IMG/VR virus record: IMGVR_UViG_3300020034_000012
Span: 1-64,000 of that record
Direction: 5' to 3' (one strand)
Length of the DNA: 64,000 bases
Source of the DNA: a virus
Part shown: positions 1 through 64,000 of the stretch, piece after piece
Layout of the letters: every line of letters starts with the position of its first letter
Position numbering within the stretch: the first letter of the stretch is position 1
Made by a program: the position numbers and the translations under genes
The notes under the pieces: generated by a model
Told to the model about the DNA's origin: nothing
The model's database searches: none
Seen by the model: only the letters and a program-made list of their open reading frames with translations

Positions 1-388
1 CTTCTACATCGTGCGCGTTTGCGAAGTTGACGATCGCATTGGCTTGCTTTCCACTCCAGCCTTCAGCAATCAACTTCGCACGCATCGCTGACTTGTCTGC
101 GCTGCTGGCGCTTCGCACTGCAGCGCGCGCAGCGTTGACCTTCTTCACTGACTTCGCGGTGTACGCGTTCGCACCCTTCACTGAGTTGAGGCGACTCAGG
201 ATCGTGGACTGCTTGAGCGGCGCAAATGCAGTGCCATCCCAGTTGGTCTGCGCTTTGAAGTGGGTATCCGTCTTGGTGACGATGTCTTCCCCGAAAAACT
301 GCAGCGCAGGACCCAGCGCCTTTACGCGGTCAGAGCGCGCGCGCATCAACTCGAGTGCTTCCGCTAGCCCGCTGGCTTCGATGAGCAT
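1..388 (-). CDS. Mu gpG-like virion morphogenesis protein (3' end cut by window)
   Basis: The reading frame is open from an ATG at 388 to the window edge, so the C-terminus is missing. The ATG overlaps the TGA of the gp36-like gene as TGATG, which fixes the start. The visible 129 residues include the motif WDGTAFAPLKQST, typical of the Mu gpG / tail-completion (virion morphogenesis) family, followed by a basic Ala-rich segment. In Mu-like heads this protein follows gp36 and acts in head or head-tail completion. Family assignment rests on the motif plus gene order. Confidence 0.75.
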   Translation of the reverse strand, partial: MLIEASGLAEALELMRARSDRVKALGPALQFFGEDIVTKTDTHFKAQTNWDGTAFAPLKQSTILSRLNSVKGANAYTAKSVKKVNAARAAVRSASSADKSAMRAKLIAEGWSGKQANAIVNFANAHDVE

Positions 389-4883: not shown

Positions 4884-5828
4884 TCAGCCTGCTTCTTCTT
4901 CTTCGCCAGTCCCTGTGTCTGTGTCAGACACATTGAGCACTGCGGTAGGTGGCTGATCAAACCCTGGCGTAGGGATGTAACCGTCAGGGATTGCAGTGCT
5001 GATGGGTACGCCTACCGCTTGCGCCTTGCTGAGCGTGATCATTGAGCAGCGGCAGTTGAATCCGTTCGGTGGTGCGATGCGCTGCCAGACTGGATCGTCC
5101 ACCGCGTAGGTCTGGCCATCCAGCACCGCATGCTCATCCCGCACGCGCGCATCACCCACCGTGCGGTATTGAACGTAGGGGCGGCTGCTTGCCACCACTG
5201 GGTTATTGATCGCTTTGTAGCGGCCAGCTCCATACGCGCTCTGCACGTTGGTGCGGAAGACCATCTCTAAGTAGCTGGGTTTCCCCGGTGCTAAGCCTAG
5301 CGATGCAGTCAGCTCATTCACTTTGTCAGCGAACTGCGGCAACGTTTCGCCTGCAGTGATTGCATCGGTCAGGTGCCGCATCACTTCGGACTGCACCTGG
5401 TCAAGCATCAGCTGGCGCGCCACTGCTGACCGCTGCGCGTAGTCACCTAGCAGCGTTTCAAAGTCCGTGTCTTCCACCAGGCCACGCGCCTTGAACGCCT
5501 CGATTGCATCGGACCATGGCAGGTCAAGGAACGGCTTCGGGGATGGCGGCGGGTCAGCCATCGCAATCACGCGCAGCTGCACTGCCTCTGCTTCACGTCC
5601 CGCTACCATCAGCTGACCGCCCATGTCTGCTAGCGCGGTGGTCACGAATAGCACGTCACCCAGCCGATCAAAGATCGCTGTGTCCTGCTTCCAGTCTGTC
5701 AGCGCAGCGTTGACCGCATCAGGGGATGACGCACCGCGGATGATGTCCGCTAGCTCTTCCCCCGCTTCAGTCATCAGCGCTGCTGCTTGGTACGTCCCAC
5801 GCACCACTAGCGTGGACGGCCGTCCCAC
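4884..5828 (-). CDS. Mu gpF-like minor head protein
   Basis: This 314-residue protein carries the hallmark gpF / SPP1 gp7 head-morphogenesis signature near residues 235-275: DARVRDEHAVLDGQ followed by PPNGFNCRC. The family consists of minor capsid proteins packed near the portal. The gene follows the portal directly and its start lies 22 bp inside the portal 3' end. The acidic C-terminal tail (TDTGTGEEEE) is not part of the core family. Confidence 0.9.
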   Translation of the reverse strand: MGRPSTLVVRGTYQAAALMTEAGEELADIIRGASSPDAVNAALTDWKQDTAIFDRLGDVLFVTTALADMGGQLMVAGREAEAVQLRVIAMADPPPSPKPFLDLPWSDAIEAFKARGLVEDTDFETLLGDYAQRSAVARQLMLDQVQSEVMRHLTDAITAGETLPQFADKVNELTASLGLAPGKPSYLEMVFRTNVQSAYGAGRYKAINNPVVASSRPYVQYRTVGDARVRDEHAVLDGQTYAVDDPVWQRIAPPNGFNCRCSMITLSKAQAVGVPISTAIPDGYIPTPGFDQPPTAVLNVSDTDTGTGEEEEAG

Positions 5829-7588
5829 TTGGCGCGCAGCACTGTCTCTAGAGGCCCTGTCGAGCGCGAGGAAGTCAGCGAAGTCTGCGCTGGTGTCGTC
5901 ACTGTCTGCCGCACCTGAGTCGTGCGGCTCTGGTCTTTTGGGATGGATGCTGCTGCGGGTGGTGCATCCCCCGGTGGTGGCGGTGGCGCATCCGCTTGCT
6001 GCTTCGGTGGTCCGCCGCCGAACGGTGGCGCAGCTGCTGGTTCAGGGGTGGGCGTGAACGCCGCAGTACCGATAGTCCCAAGCAACTGCTCAGCCGTTGT
6101 AGCATCCAAGTTGTAGGCAACCTGGATGAGCACAGCCGCACTCTCGCGGGGTAGCCCACCGATCGCCACTTCCTTGAGCACGTCCACCAGCGATGTGACT
6201 TGCGCACCATTGAGTGCGGTCTCTTGCTTCTTCACTTCCGCTGGTGCACTCGGGTCAGCCGGTGCAGGGGGAGCGTTGGGATCTGCGGGTGGTGCGTTCG
6301 GGTCAGCCGGTGCAGGCGCAGGGTTCAGTGCGTCTTCAAGCCCGGGCGATGCGCTGCCGCCGCGCACTTCGTACGGTGCGCCGCTGGTGGCTGCAGCACC
6401 GTTACCCGATGCGCGGTCCTGCGCGTTCTGCTCAGCGAGATCTTGGACGTCGGTCTTCTGCTCATCGGACGCAGTCTTCATCCGCATCTTTGGAATGGGA
6501 GGGAGCTGGTCAAACTTGTGTCGGTTGAAATGAATCAGCCAGTAGAAGAGCGTGCGGTGTAGCGTGCCGCAGAAGTTGGAGCCATCGGTCACCATACGTG
6601 GGTCAGTGGTGGCGCTGATGCGGCCAGACACTGCAGCTTGTGAACCGTTCTCACCAGGCATCGACACATCCGATGCACCCAGCCACGTCGAGCCAAGCGA
6701 GCGCGCAGCGAAGTCCATATACAACTCATGCTGCGATGCAGTCCCCGTGCCCATCGCTGGTGGCGTAACGGTGAGCTTGCCACCCGCCTCCATCACTGCA
6801 GCGCGGTCAATGCCTAGGTCAACGATCGCTGCTTTGATCTGCTGACGCACCGCCTCGGGTGTGTTCGGCTGAACTTCAGCGCTGATGAATGGCGCGCCAT
6901 ACTTCTCAAGGTTCTGAATCCAGAACGTGTCTGCCCATCGACGAAAGAGCCAGCGCCAGATGGACATGCGCATCAGCCCTGCATCGCACGGGTCACCCGC
7001 TAGTTCATTGTGCTGATGAACGATCCAGTTGGGTGGGTACAGAACTTCGCCATACATGTTGCCCGAACTGATGGCGCGCAAACCGTGGTCGTACAGACGC
7101 AGCTTCCACTGGTCATCATAGCGGAACCGGTTCGGGTTGATGTAGTGGATGGCGCGCGCGTAAGTGGTGCGCGACATCCCGTCCCTGTCCCACTCGATTT
7201 CATTCGGTGAGTAACCGAGTGCAATCGCATGCAGCGCATTGCGCACGAACTGATCCCAGTTCGTGATGCGACCTAGACACTCTTCAATGAATGTGGCTGC
7301 TTCACGCGCTAGCCGCTGGTCACCAAACTCATTGGGAACGATCTGGTAATCGGCTTGTGCTACACGCGTAATACGAGTGGTATACAAGTGGATGAGTAGA
7401 TCATCCTTGAGCGCGTGGCTAACCAGCTCTGCCCAGTGCTCTACCTCACCCCGCTGAAGCTGCAGCAGGATGGACGTCAAACGCTGCGCGGTCAGGTCAC
7501 CGTATGCACCGGGTAACCGCTGGCGCTCTGATGAACCAAGTAGCGCGCGCCGCTCGATTATCGGGAAGGCAGTGAGGGACGCAGCCAC
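5807..7588 (-). CDS. Portal protein, Mu gp29-like (DUF935)
   Basis: A 593-residue protein matching the DUF935 portal family: conserved WDGRPR-type ends, the WDQFVRNALHAIALGYSPNEIEWD segment, and a central tryptophan-rich region before LGASDVSMPGENGSQAAVSGR. The final 200 residues are a Pro/Ala-rich extension, longer than Mu gp29. It forms the dodecameric vertex through which DNA is packaged. Translation appears to start at a GTG (7588) with no strong SD. An intrinsic terminator and the 24-bp element lie just upstream, so it probably opens a separate head transcript. Confidence 0.9.
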   Translation of the reverse strand: MAASLTAFPIIERRALLGSSERQRLPGAYGDLTAQRLTSILLQLQRGEVEHWAELVSHALKDDLLIHLYTTRITRVAQADYQIVPNEFGDQRLAREAATFIEECLGRITNWDQFVRNALHAIALGYSPNEIEWDRDGMSRTTYARAIHYINPNRFRYDDQWKLRLYDHGLRAISSGNMYGEVLYPPNWIVHQHNELAGDPCDAGLMRMSIWRWLFRRWADTFWIQNLEKYGAPFISAEVQPNTPEAVRQQIKAAIVDLGIDRAAVMEAGGKLTVTPPAMGTGTASQHELYMDFAARSLGSTWLGASDVSMPGENGSQAAVSGRISATTDPRMVTDGSNFCGTLHRTLFYWLIHFNRHKFDQLPPIPKMRMKTASDEQKTDVQDLAEQNAQDRASGNGAAATSGAPYEVRGGSASPGLEDALNPAPAPADPNAPPADPNAPPAPADPSAPAEVKKQETALNGAQVTSLVDVLKEVAIGGLPRESAAVLIQVAYNLDATTAEQLLGTIGTAAFTPTPEPAAAPPFGGGPPKQQADAPPPPPGDAPPAAASIPKDQSRTTQVRQTVTTPAQTSLTSSRSTGPLETVLRAKWDGRPR

Positions 7589-36757: not shown

Positions 36758-36963
36758 AGCCACCCGCAGAACCTCCGTCGACACTATGCCGCTGCGTGTC
36801 CAGTCCTAGCTGGGGGTGGACGCGCAGCCACAGCGCTGACTGTTCATCGGATGAGCGCGCAGGGTTCGGACCCGCATGCAAGCACTGCGGACACAGCTAC
36901 TGCAAGTGTTCGTGGTGGAAGCGGTGGCGCACGGGCAACACGCATAAGCGGGATGGGTGGTAG
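36754..36963 (+). CDS. Small Cys-rich protein between the two RecD2 halves
   Basis: A 69-residue protein with GTG start at 36754, overlapping the upstream stop. Cys pairs CRCV and CKHCGHSYCKC plus many Trp and His residues form a probable zinc-binding module. It is absent from ordinary RecD2 and sits exactly at the split. It could bridge the two halves. The role is unproven. Confidence 0.6.
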   Translation: MKPPAEPPSTLCRCVSSPSWGWTRSHSADCSSDERAGFGPACKHCGHSYCKCSWWKRWRTGNTHKRDGW

Positions 36964-36965
36964 CG

Positions 36966-38159
36966 ATGACCATCGAGCTAGACCCGTCGCAGCTGATGGC
37001 TGTTCGGTTGATGGTGGAGTCACGCTTCGCCTGCGTGACCGGTGGCGCTGGCGTGGGTAAGACCACGTCCCTACGCTTTGCCATCCAAGAGATTGACGCC
37101 AAGGGGTTGCCGTTCGAACTGGCAGCGCCGACTGGCAAAGCGGCCAAGCGCATGACTGAAGCGACGGGCCAGCCAGCGCAGACGATCCACCGCTTGCTGC
37201 AGTGGCGTAATGGTCCGCAGCTAAACCATCACTTCCCGATAGACACCAGCGTGGTCATCATAGATGAGGCGTCGATGCTGGACATCGTCCTACTGCAGTT
37301 CCTGCTGGACGCGATTGACCCGACGCAGACGCGGCTGATTCTGATTGGCGATGCGAACCAGCTTCCCCCGGTGGGACCTGGCTGCCCGTTCGGTGAGCTG
37401 TGCGAGTCAGGCTTAGTCCCCGTCGCACGCTTGACCAAACTCCACCGCGCAGCAGAGCTGAGCTGGATCAATCAGGCCAGTCAGGCCGTGCTGCAGCGCA
37501 AGCTTCCTGACCTGCACACTGAGCGCGATGATTTCCGCTTCATCCCAGTGGCCACGTCCGCTGACATCGCACCCGCCATCACCGAACTGTTCACGCGTGC
37601 GACGTCCGAAGATCTGCAGGTGCTCATCCCGCAGAACCCGCGCACTGGTGGCGTGACCGAAGCGAACCTGGCGCTACAGGCGCGCATCAATCCACCGCGT
37701 GAAGGCGAAACGCATTACCGCAGACGGGACAAGACTGAGCTGCGCATCCATGACCGGGTCATCCAAACGAAAAACGATTACCAGCTGCAGATTTTCAACG
37801 GTGAAGTGGGGACGGTAGTGGACGTGGCCACAGACAAAGTCACGGTCAACTTCATGGACCGTGGGGATGTGGGCTACACGCCGCAGCAGGCAGGCGCACT
37901 GCAGCTGGCGTATGCATTGACCGTGCACAAGATGCAGGGTTCGGAGTTTCCGTGGATCTGTTTTGTGTGCCACTCGACACACACGCATCTGCTTTCGCCG
38001 CAACTGATCTACACTGCGATCACCCGGGGCAAGAAAGGCGTAATCATCGTGGGTGATGAGAAGGGAATGCAGCAGGGTTTGCGAATGAAAAACCCACCAC
38101 GCCGCAACTCAGGACTCATTCAACGGCTGACCAAACACGTGGACTTCATCGCAGCATGA
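36966..38159 (+). CDS. RecD2-like helicase, ATPase part
   Basis: A 397-residue superfamily 1B helicase. Walker A GGAGVGKTTSLRF at about residue 26-38, motif Ia AAPTGKAAKRM, motif II VIIDEASML near residue 100, motif III LIGDANQLPPVG, and the late TVHKMQGSEFPWI and YTAITRGKK motifs. All ATPase motifs of RecD2 are present. ATG 36966 is used; an in-frame GTG at 36957 also exists. The N-terminal domains lie in the separate 35852 gene. Confidence 0.85.
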   Translation: MTIELDPSQLMAVRLMVESRFACVTGGAGVGKTTSLRFAIQEIDAKGLPFELAAPTGKAAKRMTEATGQPAQTIHRLLQWRNGPQLNHHFPIDTSVVIIDEASMLDIVLLQFLLDAIDPTQTRLILIGDANQLPPVGPGCPFGELCESGLVPVARLTKLHRAAELSWINQASQAVLQRKLPDLHTERDDFRFIPVATSADIAPAITELFTRATSEDLQVLIPQNPRTGGVTEANLALQARINPPREGETHYRRRDKTELRIHDRVIQTKNDYQLQIFNGEVGTVVDVATDKVTVNFMDRGDVGYTPQQAGALQLAYALTVHKMQGSEFPWICFVCHSTHTHLLSPQLIYTAITRGKKGVIIVGDEKGMQQGLRMKNPPRRNSGLIQRLTKHVDFIAA

Positions 38160-38500
38160 CTGGACTGCCAGAGTTGTGGTGCAGGTTTTGTAAAGAGCTA
38201 ACCAAGCAGGTGGTTAGCGAAGTGAACCCGCACCATCGAACATGCATCACCTGCTGGCGCAGACAGAAGGACGGGGTACGCATTGAGATTACGGACGGGG
38301 AACGCTTCAGCGAGCAAGCACCCCGCAGAGATACGCGGCCACCCACGCTGCCGCCGCCGCCAATGATTCCCGCGGTGGACTACGTAGAGCGGCTAGAGTT
38401 CAACGATGTCCTGCGCCGCATCGAGACGATTGAGCGTGTGCTAGCCGCGCAAAGTAACCAGTTGTCAGGAGTAGCTGCACTAACCACGCTGTATAAATAG
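38156..38500 (+). CDS. Hypothetical zinc-ribbon protein
   Basis: A 114-residue protein. WCRFCKELT and HRTCITCWRRQ give two Cys pairs 20 residues apart, a probable zinc ribbon, followed by a Pro-rich linker and a C-terminal helix with EFNDVLRRIETIERVLAAQ. Its start overlaps the helicase stop by four bases. A helicase-associated DNA-binding protein is plausible. Confidence 0.65.
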   Translation: MTGLPELWCRFCKELTKQVVSEVNPHHRTCITCWRRQKDGVRIEITDGERFSEQAPRRDTRPPTLPPPPMIPAVDYVERLEFNDVLRRIETIERVLAAQSNQLSGVAALTTLYK

Positions 38501-58974: not shown

Positions 58975-59847
58975 TCACGCACTGAAAGTAGCCAGCTGCT
59001 GCACGCGGTAGCCCACGTCAAACAAAGCGTGGTCGATTTCTCCGCCCGCACGCTTGCAGTTGGTGAGATCCCACAGGCACCCATCCGGCCGAAGCTTGAA
59101 CAGGTAGTTGAACCCGTCATCAAACCCATCGAGCACAGCGAACGGCAGCACCGATCGGCAGGACTCGAATAGCAACTGGTGCGTAAACGGGTGCGTCGGG
59201 ACCGCGTCATCGCGCAGCGTCTTCTCACGCGTTTCACTTTGCTGCACGAAGTCCCGGTAGAGTGGCGTAGCTGACCGCGTCAGACCGAACTGCACACCAC
59301 CTGCGCTCATCGCGGCCGCACTGATCTTCGTGGGTTCGTAGACGTAGCCCTTCGTGTCCTCCATCGTGATGGAGGACAGCACAGGCTCAATGATGAAGTT
59401 CGGTAGACGCGTCCCTGTGACGACTTCAGCAGACCCCGTGAAGTCATCCGCGAAGCCGAACAGTCTGCGCGTATGGATGTTTGAAAAACGGATGGCCGTG
59501 AACGCATCGCTGAAGTAGCTGAAGCTGTACGTGCTGCCGTTGAACTCGCAGTAGAGCTGGCTGACGTCAGGCCAGCTTGCGTCATCACGCATGCGCGCGG
59601 TCATCGCTTCACCTAGGCCAGCGGCTGCAAGGTTACGGCCAGCGTACGGAACCGCTTCACCGTCTTCCCCTACGAACGTGTTCATTAGGTAGTGGTTGAA
59701 CACGGACACGTCCCGTGACCCGTCGAGCGTGACGTACCTAAGCGATGTGATGTCAATCGTGAAGTCGGTTGAACCAGAGCGGCTGAACGTGACGCTGCCA
59801 AGGACATGGCGCGCATCCATCACATTGAAGAAGGCTGCGTATTGCAT
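58975..59847 (-). CDS. Tail protein, paralog A
   Basis: A 290-residue protein. FTAIRFSNIHTRRLFGFADDF matches a motif in the next gene upstream (59847): ITFSNATIRRLFGFAANF. The later REKTLRDD and CRSVLPFAVLDGFDDG also align (AKTFRR and CRSSLPFAVMDGFLDG). The pair probably arose by gene duplication and forms part of the tail tip or tube end. It ends just 3 bp before the large hub-like gene. Confidence 0.65.
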   Translation of the reverse strand: MQYAAFFNVMDARHVLGSVTFSRSGSTDFTIDITSLRYVTLDGSRDVSVFNHYLMNTFVGEDGEAVPYAGRNLAAAGLGEAMTARMRDDASWPDVSQLYCEFNGSTYSFSYFSDAFTAIRFSNIHTRRLFGFADDFTGSAEVVTGTRLPNFIIEPVLSSITMEDTKGYVYEPTKISAAAMSAGGVQFGLTRSATPLYRDFVQQSETREKTLRDDAVPTHPFTHQLLFESCRSVLPFAVLDGFDDGFNYLFKLRPDGCLWDLTNCKRAGGEIDHALFDVGYRVQQLATFSA

Positions 59848-60752
59848 CAGACGATGAGCCCCTCACCCTCAAACGTCAGGCTGTCCCCGTCGATGGTCAC
59901 GCCTTCCACTCGGCCGACTGCCACCGTTTCGAACGGGACGTGAAACTGATCACGGCTGCCAGCCACAGCGGTCATTGCGTGGAAGTTTTCCGAACCGTTC
60001 TCAAAGCAGTAGGCGGTCAGCGCCCCGTCAAGGAAACCATCCATCACTGCAAACGGCAGGCTGCTTCGACAGTCCTTGTACAAGTCTTCAAACGTGTACT
60101 CAGCTGGCTCTGCGCCTGCGTAGCGTCGAAACGTTTTGGCGCGCGTTTCATATTGCTGCACCCACTTGCGGCGAAGGGGCGCCTGCGTGCGTGCGATGCT
60201 GTAGCTGCGCCCCGTCGCACTGAAGGCGACTGTGCTAATCGCGTCAGTCTCATACACTGTGCTGGCCGATGACGCGCCATCGATCGTGGGTTCGATGATG
60301 TGCGAAGGGATCTGAGTTCCCGCGATGCTGTCATCGCTGCCGCTGAAGTTTGCTGCGAAGCCGAACAGTCTGCGGATGGTTGCGTTACTGAACGTGATCG
60401 CCGTGATGCCCGTGGGATATTCGAGCGTGACCCTGCGTGTCACTGAGTTGAACCCCACGTTGATGCTGTCTGGGTCTGACCAGCCTGCGACGTCCGCAGC
60501 TGCGCGCAGCGTTACCGCTATGGCTTGGTAGAAGGTGTATTGACTGAAGGTCTTCAGCTGATTGGAGTGGCCATAGTCCATGCCACTCCAGTTGTTGGTC
60601 ACGATGTAGTTGTAATAGAACGCAACGTTCCCGTACGCATTGATGAATGCCAGCGCGCTAGGTGAAACCGCGATCGTTCCACCGCCACTCTTGGTAACGC
60701 TGATGTTACCGGTGGGCAGCAGTCGCCGATCAAAGCTTGCGAAATAGGCCAT
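59847..60752 (-). CDS. Tail protein, paralog B
   Basis: A 301-residue protein (from ATG 60752; ATG 60758 is also possible), paralogous to the 58975 gene by the shared RRLFGFA, FSGS/FTGS and CRSSLPFAVMDGFLDG segments. It follows the tape measure gene. In siphophages this position holds the distal tail proteins. No named family is recognised. Confidence 0.65.
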   Translation of the reverse strand: MAYFASFDRRLLPTGNISVTKSGGGTIAVSPSALAFINAYGNVAFYYNYIVTNNWSGMDYGHSNQLKTFSQYTFYQAIAVTLRAAADVAGWSDPDSINVGFNSVTRRVTLEYPTGITAITFSNATIRRLFGFAANFSGSDDSIAGTQIPSHIIEPTIDGASSASTVYETDAISTVAFSATGRSYSIARTQAPLRRKWVQQYETRAKTFRRYAGAEPAEYTFEDLYKDCRSSLPFAVMDGFLDGALTAYCFENGSENFHAMTAVAGSRDQFHVPFETVAVGRVEGVTIDGDSLTFEGEGLIV

Positions 60753-60761
60753 GGTCATCAG

Positions 60762-62693
60762 TCATCCGTAAACACGCATGGCCTGGCGCGTCGCTTGCTG
60801 GATGCGTGCGCCATCGACAGCTGATGGCGACAGCATCGTGGGGAAGTTGATGTTGATGATCATCGGTCCGGTGGCCGTGCTGCCGTAACGCGCTGTGTCA
60901 CCGAAGGGGTCTGCGTAGTTCGTGCGCGCTGGTTCGCCACCGCCACCGCCGCCACTCGCGCCTGCGCTTGAACCACCGGACGCGCGCGCGCCTGCCGCAC
61001 CTAGCGCTAAGCCCGCGGCGATCTCCGCTGCACCTACGCCAGCAAGCCCGGCCGCAAACGGTGCAGTGGGTGGAAAGAACGCCATGGCTGCTGCTTGGAA
61101 AAGCACGCGCGTCCCCTCTGCAACCATCTGATCACCGATGCCTTCGATGACTGAACCCAGCGCAATCTCGTGACCCTTCGCCATTTCGCTGAACAGCTTG
61201 ACCGAAGTGCTTGCGCCAATCTGCGCAACATTGGTGACTGCGTCCGTATACGCTTTGTGTTTTGTCTGCAGTGCAGCGTAGTACTTATCTAGACGTTCCT
61301 TCTCTGCTTCGGCTGCGCGCTTCCTGGTGACTTCATCTTCTTCTGCAAAGTACTCGTTTAGATCGTGGATGGCCTTCATCCGAATCATCTTGATATCGGA
61401 CTCTTTAGCTTCGGCTTCTGATTCCTTGTCTGTCACCTTCTTCTTCGATGCTGCTATCAGCGCATCGATCTGCTTCATCTTCCCCTGAGTAGTCTCGAGA
61501 CTTTCAGGGGTGCTCCACTTGTGCGCCTTCGTGTAGTCTTCGATGCCAGCAAGGCGTGCAGCTTCATCGGCTTCTGCTTGCCCGATGTCACCTTGCGCGT
61601 CCTTGGTTTTCTTATCCCCCTCCAACTTCGCCGCAGCGTCTTGTGCGCGCCTAGACATCACGCGGCTGTACGCGGACTCCGTCTCATCGAGAACTTTTGT
61701 TAGGCGCGCGTACTCTGCAAGCGCCGCCTGCACGCCAGTCTCACCACCGCCTGCACTCTCAGGACGATTGCGGATCCTGTTGAGTTGTGGCGCAGTAAAC
61801 CGCTCTGCCAAACGATGGCGGCGTGCAGCTAGGTCCGCGTTGAACTCCTGGTCTGTCGCGGTCCCGTTCGCTAACCGTGTACCAAGATCACCCTCACTCT
61901 GAAGCGCGCCCACCTTGCCAGATGCTTGGCTGCGCAAGTTGGCGATGGCGCCCACGTAATCCGCTAGAGCGCCCGTGTTTTTCTTGGTGGCTTCGGCGAG
62001 TGCATCCGCTTCTTCTTTCGCGGATGCCATGTAACTGCCTAAGCCACTGACGGCTGCAACCAAGCCAGCGCCGATCAACATCCCAGCAGGTCCACCCGCT
62101 GACCCTGCTGCCGCACCGCCTGCCGCACCACCTGCACTGGCGCCACTCAAAGCTGCACCGCCTGCTGTGCCAAGGATGCCAAGCATCTGCGACATGGCAG
62201 ACCCTGCGCCACGTAGCGCAGTGGTAACGCCCGATGTGCTTGGAGCAAGCTGGCTTAGGCTCTGACTCAGGTTACCCACCAGCGCAGCGGTCTGGCCGCT
62301 TGCTGCTTTGAGCTTATCCGTGCTGGTGAATAGCGCTGTGCTGGAGGACGAAACTTTTTCCCACGCAGATTTATTTTTGACCAGTGCATCAGTCTCTGCG
62401 TTGACCGCAGCAGCTTCCTTCTTCAGCTGCTCAATCACATTGCTTCGCTGTATCTGCGCAGACGTTTGGGCCAGCATCTTCTGCGTGCTGTCCAAGCGTG
62501 CCCATGCGTCCGCTTCCTTCTGAATCTCCCCGATGACTTGCGCGCGTTTCAGATCCTTGCTGGTGTCAGCAATCAGCTTCTGCGTCTTGAGCTGCCGCTC
62601 CATCGAAGCGGCAACCTTGTCAAACGCCTGCGCTACTTCCGCAGTGCCATCGGCTGCAACTTCAAACTGGATCTTCTTATCTGCCTCTGACAT
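60762..62693 (-). CDS. Tape measure protein
   Basis: A 643-residue protein with a helical N-terminus (AEVAQAFDKVAASMERQLKT), a long Gly/Ala-rich hydrophobic region near residues 180-215 (GGAALSGASAGGAAGGAAAG), coiled coils in the middle, and a Gly/Ser-rich C-terminal stretch. This is the usual tape measure plan. At roughly 1.5 A per residue it would set a tail of about 95 nm. The gene starts 17 bp inside the tail chaperone extension. Confidence 0.85.
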   Translation of the reverse strand: MSEADKKIQFEVAADGTAEVAQAFDKVAASMERQLKTQKLIADTSKDLKRAQVIGEIQKEADAWARLDSTQKMLAQTSAQIQRSNVIEQLKKEAAAVNAETDALVKNKSAWEKVSSSSTALFTSTDKLKAASGQTAALVGNLSQSLSQLAPSTSGVTTALRGAGSAMSQMLGILGTAGGAALSGASAGGAAGGAAAGSAGGPAGMLIGAGLVAAVSGLGSYMASAKEEADALAEATKKNTGALADYVGAIANLRSQASGKVGALQSEGDLGTRLANGTATDQEFNADLAARRHRLAERFTAPQLNRIRNRPESAGGGETGVQAALAEYARLTKVLDETESAYSRVMSRRAQDAAAKLEGDKKTKDAQGDIGQAEADEAARLAGIEDYTKAHKWSTPESLETTQGKMKQIDALIAASKKKVTDKESEAEAKESDIKMIRMKAIHDLNEYFAEEDEVTRKRAAEAEKERLDKYYAALQTKHKAYTDAVTNVAQIGASTSVKLFSEMAKGHEIALGSVIEGIGDQMVAEGTRVLFQAAAMAFFPPTAPFAAGLAGVGAAEIAAGLALGAAGARASGGSSAGASGGGGGGEPARTNYADPFGDTARYGSTATGPMIININFPTMLSPSAVDGARIQQATRQAMRVYG

Positions 62694-62976
62694 GACCGCC
62701 CCTCATAGGCAGCGGACGCACGCGCGCGCGTTCCTGCTTCTCCAGCTCCATCTGCTTGGACCACACGCGGTTAGTGACGTGGTGGTAGTGGCGGATGCCT
62801 GCGACTAGGCGCGCGCTTGGCTGCGGCAATGCAAACGCAAGCTGACCGGATTCGAAAAATGGCATGGCGTAGATCACACGCTGCACAAACGGATCACGCA
62901 GTGCACGCCACGGGCAACCGGATACGAACTGCGTACCGGTTAGTTCCTGGATGCTTGCGAAGATCCGATCGGTCAT
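62677..62976 (-). CDS. Tail chaperone extension (T-like); probable -1 frame product
   Basis: From ATG 62976 the ORF gives 99 residues (MTDRIFASIQELTG). But the same frame stays open upstream to about 63260, inside the 62994 gene, and reads sensibly there (CGGAQQREAIGALYTQPG, NGDQPIGRWNPG). A slippery TTTTTTG lies just inside the start of this open stretch. By analogy with lambda G/GT, I infer the main product is a fusion to the upstream chaperone made by -1 frameshifting. A separate start at 62976 is also possible. Confidence 0.7.
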   Translation of the reverse strand: MTDRIFASIQELTGTQFVSGCPWRALRDPFVQRVIYAMPFFESGQLAFALPQPSARLVAGIRHYHHVTNRVWSKQMELEKQERARVRPLPMRGGHVRGR

Positions 62977-62993
62977 GCCTGGGTTCCAACGTC

Positions 62994-63629
62994 CTATGGG
63001 TTGATCACCGTTGCAGTCACAGCCATACGATCGTCTGAGCGTTCTGCGGCGGTTGAGCTGGTCTTGTCTGTTCCTGCCTGGCTGGGTATAGAGGGCACCG
63101 ATGGCTTCCCTTTGCTGCGCCCCGCCGCACTTTTCTGGCTCGACTCCGCAAGGCGCAGCTCCAATGCCGTCATGGGTGCGTGTAACGAAGGCAGCAGCAG
63201 ATAGGTTGCTGCAATCCGTCGTGGCAAAAAAGAGTGTGTATAGATCACCGCACCAATCTCAGCGCGTTCCGCTGGTGAGAACAGGCGCAGGTCATCATCA
63301 TCCAAGATGATGGCGCTGGTGCGCGTGTTAATTGTGGTGGGCGCCCACGTCCCGAGTGTGACCCCGTCTAGCTGCGGCAGGTTCTCAACCTTCTCAATCC
63401 CGCAGATGAATGCGCGTCTGTATTTTTCAGACGCTGCATCGGGCGCATCGACGTACTCATCGAACAGCCCATGAGGCACTTCGCGCACGTGGTAGACGAC
63501 GGGCTTACCTGCAGGCTTGACCTTGACCAGATCGTAATCACGCGTCTTGCCGTAACGGATGCGCACATCGATGTCCATGTCTAGATCTTCATCCAGCATC
63601 GACACACACTTGAAGCGTTCTGCTCTCAT
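62994..63629 (-). CDS. Tail assembly chaperone (G-like)
   Basis: A 211-residue protein directly upstream of the tape measure gene, where siphophage tail chaperones lie. N-terminal part is beta-rich (VRIRYGKTRDYDLVKVKPAG), the middle contains AERAEIGAVIYTHSF, and the last 70 residues after the slip site are Ser/Ala-rich and disordered in this frame. The alternative -1 product (see 62677) is longer. Chaperones of this type bind the tape measure protein. Confidence 0.7.
   Translation of the reverse strand: MRAERFKCVSMLDEDLDMDIDVRIRYGKTRDYDLVKVKPAGKPVVYHVREVPHGLFDEYVDAPDAASEKYRRAFICGIEKVENLPQLDGVTLGTWAPTTINTRTSAIILDDDDLRLFSPAERAEIGAVIYTHSFLPRRIAATYLLLPSLHAPMTALELRLAESSQKSAAGRSKGKPSVPSIPSQAGTDKTSSTAAERSDDRMAVTATVINP
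63225..63231 (-). other. TTTTTTG slippery heptamer; probable -1 frameshift site
   Basis: In the chaperone frame the heptamer reads T TTT TTG, a canonical X-XXY-YYZ slip site. The -1 frame has a stop (TGA) about ten codons upstream and then is open for about 190 codons to 62677, running over the chaperone stop into the T-like ORF. That is the arrangement of known programmed frameshifts in tail chaperones. Confidence 0.7.
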
Positions 63630-63641
63630 CGCTAACCCCGA

Positions 63642-64000
63642 TCAAAAGAGATGGATGCGCAGCGCTGACTTTTGAAGCGCGCTGGTGTTCGTGTTGGTTT
63701 GCGAGTCCAGCCGCGCGTACCAGGTCACGCGCTGGCCTGCGATGCCTCCCACCGTTTCGCGCTGGAAGCCGTCCACTACCGCATGCGGAACACTGATCAT
63801 GAATCCGCCACCGGCTAGGCTTGAACCCACCTGATAAGCGAGCGCGTATGCAGTCTCGCTATCGCGGGCAGTGCGCCACACGACAGACTCATAGGGCAGC
63901 GCGAAGTTACCCGTGACTGCAGGGCCGGACGCACGCGTCCGCACCCACTGCTTGATATTGTTCACCCCGCCTGGCGTGATGTGCGGTTCGTAAACGATGT
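63642..64000 (-). CDS. Probable major tail (tube) protein, 5' end cut by window
   Basis: The frame is open from the window edge to the stop at 63642; the last 118 residues are seen. The protein is beta-rich (VTGNFALPYESVVWRTARD, AGQRVTWYARLDSQTNTNT), ends in SALRIHLF, and sits just upstream of the tail chaperone, the usual place for the major tail or tube subunit. The start near 63965 is only an internal GTG. The true start is outside the window. The family is inferred from order. Confidence 0.55.
   Translation of the reverse strand, partial: IVYEPHITPGGVNNIKQWVRTRASGPAVTGNFALPYESVVWRTARDSETAYALAYQVGSSLAGGGFMISVPHAVVDGFQRETVGGIAGQRVTWYARLDSQTNTNTSALQKSALRIHLF

What the first reader, a model, noticed from the sequence alone, without database searches (positions are those of the whole stretch)
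62677..63629. Programmed -1 frameshift in the tail chaperone at a TTTTTTG slip site
Gene 62994-63629 contains T TTT TTG in frame (63225-63231). The -1 frame carries a stop about ten codons upstream, then is open without a stop for about 190 codons through the chaperone stop to 62677. The encoded text in that frame looks protein-like (for example CGGAQQREAIGALYTQPG). The layout matches lambda G/GT and the gene sits right before the tape measure gene. It is unusual that the 0 frame also continues about 79 codons after the slip.
Basis: partly seen in the sequence, partly recalled or inferred. Interest (0 to 1): 0.7.

Follow-up and report, generated by a model that had tools for sequence, protein, structure and literature searches.

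The report
Phage tail-chaperone -1 frameshift site
An uncharacterised phage has, in the gene just before its presumed tail length-ruler gene, a T-rich slip site that probably makes some ribosomes step back one base and produce a longer tail-assembly chaperone; this is a well-known trick of long-tailed phages, here in a gene with no detectable relatives.

Summary
On the minus strand, T TTT TTG (63231-63225) lies in phase in a 211-codon gene (62994-63629). The -1 frame closes 9 codons upstream of it and is then open for 182 codons, through the 0-frame stop, to 62677, overlapping the next gene (presumed tape measure). This is the only TTTTTT run in 64 kb on either strand. Recoding Ser-Phe-Leu with the phage's own codon usage gives T TTT TTR 0.7% of the time, and an open -1 frame over the 76-codon overlap 1-2% of the time. 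Codon-usage signal is 0-frame before the heptamer, ambiguous over the overlap and -1 after it, the same three-step pattern as in JBD5. D3112-like phages (JBD5, MP22, MP42, VW-6B) have the same layout with T TTT TTC/T; two records annotate the slip. P2 E/E+E' uses the same heptamer. Best reading: lambda G/GT-type -1 frameshifting giving about 317 aa besides 211 aa. No homologue of this tail module was found, so conservation could not be tested and the chaperone assignment rests on position. An own ATG at 62976 leaves separate translation of the downstream part possible. A new member of a known kind; the long 0-frame tail modestly exaggerates the D3112-like layout.

The parts
62994..63629 (-). 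0-frame tail assembly chaperone (G-like), 211 aa, ending in a Ser/Thr-rich tail
   Evidence: ORF and codon-usage signal strongly 0-frame up to the heptamer; lies between the presumed major tail and tape measure genes; no family match, so the name rests on position
63225..63231 (-). slippery heptamer T TTT TTG, codons 133-135
   Evidence: direct reading; only TTTTTT run in the window
62677..63224 (-). -1 frame (T-like extension), 182 codons after the slip; fusion about 317 aa
   Evidence: open frame; codon usage ambiguous over the overlap, then -1
62997..63224 (-). 76-codon overlap with both frames open; dual-coding signature
   Evidence: LL0-LL(-1)=9.5, against a mean of 71 in 386 windows of the phage's other genes (231 bases each, against 228 here); 1.6th percentile
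63259..63261 (-). -1 frame stop (TGA) that closes the extension frame just upstream of the slip site
62677..62976 (-). 99-codon ORF in the -1 frame with its own ATG; possible independent start of the T-like part
   Evidence: Shine-Dalgarno-like match -4.3 kcal/mol
60762..62693 (-). presumed tape measure protein (643 aa), overlapping the end of the -1 frame by 17 bases
   Evidence: position and Ala/Gly/Lys/Glu-rich sequence; no informative family match
63642..64000 (-). C-terminal part of the presumed major tail protein (gene continues beyond the window to about 64919)
   Evidence: position only; no family match

Best explanation
This is a programmed -1 ribosomal frameshift in a tail assembly chaperone gene, working like lambda G/GT and P2 E/E+E'. 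Most ribosomes read the 0 frame and make the 211-aa G-like protein. A minority, with the two tRNAs on TTT and TTG in the P and A sites, slip back one base onto TTT TTT, continue in the -1 frame through the 0-frame stop and make a fusion of about 317 aa (133 residues, the two slip-site residues, and 182 from the -1 frame). By analogy with lambda, the shared N-terminal part would coat the tape measure protein and the rare -1 extension would recruit the major tail protein. Shown here: the sites, frames, codon-usage signal and gene order. Inferred: that slippage occurs, its efficiency, and the chaperone role.
For: In-phase T TTT TTG, the only TTTTTT run in 64 kb. Given the amino acids, T TTT TTR 0.7% and an open -1 frame about 1-2%. 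Coding signal 0-frame, then ambiguous from the heptamer to the 0-frame stop, then -1; JBD5 gives the same pattern. JBD5, MP22, MP42, VW-6B and HKPH_J3 have T TTT TTC/T at codon 109-126, 37-47 0-frame codons left, a -1 stop 12-14 codons upstream, and a -1 frame open up to the tape measure region; MP22 and MP42 records annotate the slippery sequence and a joined product. PMC4378225 reports the same for PaMx73. P2 uses TTTTTTG, 91-aa E and 142-aa E+E' (PMC3091744). Position between presumed major tail and tape measure genes, downstream of identifiable head genes.
Against: No homologue of the chaperone, the -1 domain, the tape measure or other tail proteins was found, so neither conservation of the heptamer nor of the -1 frame could be tested. 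No profile similarity to the D3112-like chaperones. No significant RNA structure after the site (z -0.47) and no strong upstream Shine-Dalgarno-like stimulator, though PMC3091744 reports no structure for P2-like phages either. Synonymous resampling does not by itself show excess -1 codon usage in the overlap (14.6% of recodings as low). The overlap's -1 text has about six Cys in about 80 residues, which is odd for a protein.
Confidence: 0.85

Rival explanations
1. Two ordinary consecutive genes: the 211-aa chaperone and a separate 99-aa protein started at its own ATG (62976). The heptamer and the open -1 frame over the overlap are coincidences.
For: ATG at 62976 with a moderate Shine-Dalgarno-like match, 17 bases after the 0-frame stop; the -1 codon signal is strong only from about there; the -1 text before it is Cys-rich.
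Against: Requires an unlikely T6 run in the right phase and place (0.7%) and a chance-open -1 frame (1-2%), and does not explain the loss of 0-frame signal from the heptamer on. Independent initiation and frameshifting are not exclusive.
Confidence: 0.12
2. Assembly or sequencing error in the T run: the true gene is one continuous frame and the 0-frame tail is an artefact, or the reverse.
For: The site is a homopolymer run in a sequence taken from a virus contig collection; the raw reads were not available.
Against: A simple indel would make the signal switch cleanly to the -1 frame; instead both frames look coded over the overlap, as in JBD5, and the 0-frame tail is Ser/Thr-rich like the JBD5 tail.
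Confidence: 0.03

Closest known systems
D3112-like Mu-like siphophages (Casadabanvirus; JBD5, MP22, MP42) tail assembly chaperone -1 frameshift
   Same: Gene between major tail and tape measure; in-phase T6 heptamer late in the gene; a -1 stop about ten codons upstream; a dual-open stretch with a Ser-rich 0-frame tail; -1 frame ending at the tape measure region; Mu-like head genes
   Different: Heptamer ends in C or T rather than G; 0-frame tail 37-47 instead of 76 codons; -1 extension 85-93 instead of 182 codons; no detectable sequence similarity
Phage P2 E/E+E' -1 frameshift
   Same: Same heptamer TTTTTTG and -1 direction; same place between tail tube and tape measure genes; no downstream RNA structure reported for P2-like phages (PMC3091744)
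   Different: Myophage; much shorter proteins (91 and 142 aa); homology of the proteins not tested
Phage lambda G/GT
   Same: Same gene position, -1 direction and overall logic (review PMC5009743)
   Different: Lambda uses GGGAAAG (own knowledge) near the end of G; here the 0 frame runs 76 codons past the site

Membership tests
Programmed -1 frameshift in a tailed-phage tail assembly chaperone (G/GT type) | In-phase X XXY YYZ heptamer within the upstream ORF | tested here: met
   T TTT TTG, codons 133-135
Programmed -1 frameshift in a tailed-phage tail assembly chaperone (G/GT type) | -1 frame closed upstream, open from the site past the 0-frame stop | tested here: met
   TGA at 63261-63259; open 182 codons to 62677
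Programmed -1 frameshift in a tailed-phage tail assembly chaperone (G/GT type) | Gene lies between the major tail protein and the tape measure protein | tested here: inconclusive
   Neighbours fit by size, position and composition, but neither has an informative family match
Programmed -1 frameshift in a tailed-phage tail assembly chaperone (G/GT type) | Downstream frame is coding | tested here: met
   Codon signal ambiguous over the overlap, then clearly -1; JBD5 gives the same pattern
Programmed -1 frameshift in a tailed-phage tail assembly chaperone (G/GT type) | Heptamer and -1 frame conserved among relatives | tested here: inconclusive
   Relatives were sought and none found
Programmed -1 frameshift in a tailed-phage tail assembly chaperone (G/GT type) | Fusion protein made in low proportion | not testable with these tools
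   Needs mass spectrometry or a reporter
D3112-like tail assembly chaperone family | Sequence homology of the 0-frame protein | tested here: not met
   hhalign probability 0.5%; no tblastn match in the phage collection

The most novel reading that the evidence does not exclude
The gene makes two functional C-terminal regions over the same 76 codons: a long Ser/Thr-rich 0-frame tail and a -1-frame linker, each selected for, in a tail chaperone lineage unrelated in sequence to the families searched here.
Probability: 0.35. Interest if true: 0.35.

Novelty: new member of a known kind. Interest (0 to 1): 0.25.

Why it matters
It adds a sequence-orphan tail module to the phages that keep the G/GT frameshift layout, in line with the view that the mechanism is conserved while the proteins diverge (PMC5009743). 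For annotation, it means the gene pair should be joined. The long two-frame overlap makes it a usable test of how far before the 0-frame stop such a slip site can sit.

Tried and rejected
Homologue searches of the chaperone, -1 ORF, presumed tape measure, presumed major tail and four other tail proteins, spread over phages, viral contigs and one species-genome collection (not every protein in every collection): nothing. A capsid-based viral-contig scan matched nothing; terminase relatives carry no matching tail module. Family libraries: nothing for the chaperone or -1 domain. PDB sequence search: one match, to an unrelated protein, E 0.45. AlphaFold2 on the single 211-aa sequence: mean pLDDT 35, not used. 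Downstream RNA structure: not different from shuffles. The distant profile comparison with D3112-like chaperones was negative. BLAST matches between our presumed tape measure and the JBD5 one were made without composition correction and show many overlapping pieces; I give them no weight.

Full report
Observation. The minus-strand gene 62994-63629 (211 codons) carries T TTT TTG at 63231-63225 in the phase needed for a -1 tandem slip. In the -1 frame a TGA at 63261-63259 lies 9 codons upstream; after the heptamer 182 codons are open, past the 0-frame TAG at 62996-62994, to the TAA at 62679-62677. The -1 frame overlaps the start of the next gene (ATG 62693) by 17 bases. After the TTG codon the 0 frame continues for 76 codons.

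More than chance. The heptamer holds the only TTTTTT run on either strand of the 64-kb window. With the phage's codon usage, Ser-Phe-Leu would be written T TTT TTR 0.7% of the time, and a T6 would appear in phase in the relevant part of the gene in 0.7% of synonymous recodings; any X XXY YYZ site with Y = A or T would appear in 11%. The -1 frame would be open over the overlap in 2.4% of synonymous resamplings and 0.9% of codon permutations; 3.0% of 76-codon stretches of the other genes are that open.

Codon-usage test. A frame model was trained on 22 long genes of the phage, leaving out this region. Among 386 windows of those genes, each scored with its own gene left out of training, the true frame wins in 98.7%. 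In our gene, 0 minus -1 log-likelihood is +180 before the heptamer, +9.5 over the overlap and -66 after it; the overlap value is at the 1.6th percentile of normal windows, whose mean is 71 (the windows were 231 bases, the overlap 228). Given the 0-frame amino acids, 14.6% of recodings score as low, while the phage's other gene windows score higher than their recodings (mean z +1.3, ours -1.1, 2.0th percentile). So the overlap looks shared between frames, though part of that comes from its amino-acid make-up. JBD5, used as a control because its layout is conserved in several phages, gives the same steps: 84, 15 and -55 per 123 nt.

Surroundings. The record is 65,961 bases. A head module with terminase, portal, MuF, protease, decoration and capsid proteins was recognised, and Neck1-like matches at both ends of the record suggest a circularly permuted contig (inference). 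The genes called major tail (63642 to about 64919) and tape measure (60762-62693) are named by position and composition; the libraries give no informative match.

Relatives. Tail-module searches returned nothing. The capsid protein has 26-28% matches, most of them in Pseudomonas phages including D3112-like siphophages, which led to the comparison. There the chaperone gene has T TTT TTC or T TTT TTT at codon 109-126, 37-47 trailing codons and a -1 frame open 85-93 codons. MP22 and MP42 annotate the slippery sequence, the -1 product is conserved among JBD5, MP22 and MP42, and PMC4378225 describes it for PaMx73. JBD25, B3 and JBD67 have C CCT TTC at the like place. The 0-frame protein here shows no profile similarity to that family.

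Mechanism. Simultaneous slippage of the tRNAs on TTT and TTG onto TTT TTT, giving a minor fusion of about 317 aa, is the simplest account. Its role as a G/GT-type chaperone pair is by analogy (PMC5009743). No stimulator was found: the downstream structure is not different from shuffles and the upstream Shine-Dalgarno-like match is weak; PMC3091744 reports no hairpin for P2-like phages with the same heptamer. Efficiency is unknown.

Alternatives. Independent initiation at ATG 62976 is possible and may coexist. A read error in the T run is unlikely but unchecked.

Verdict. A probable, ordinary member of the tail-chaperone frameshift kind, with an unusually long overlap.

Noticed in passing
window 5936-5942 and 4884-6044 (-): Portal gene end: in-phase C CCA AAA at codon 549 of 593, -1 frame open from 6041 through the MuF gene; codon signal favours -1 after the heptamer (LL -12 over 126 bases). 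A portal-MuF fusion by frameshift, a non-ATG start or an indel are all possible; an open -1 frame there is not itself unlikely (47% of recodings).
   Followed up: partly
window 58975-59847 and 59847-60758 (-): Two adjacent tail genes after the presumed tape measure are paralogues (36% identity, shared RRLFGFA and IIEP motifs); no relatives found.
   Followed up: partly
window 2-388 (-) and L002:3479-3961 (-): Neck1-like matches at both ends of the record, as expected if a circularly permuted genome was cut inside a neck gene; the match at the second place is weak (E 0.027).
   Followed up: no
window 36957-38159 (+): In-phase G GGT TTG 28 codons before the end of a helicase-like gene, -1 frame open 139 codons, past the start of the next ORF (38156-38500); could be chance.
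   Followed up: no
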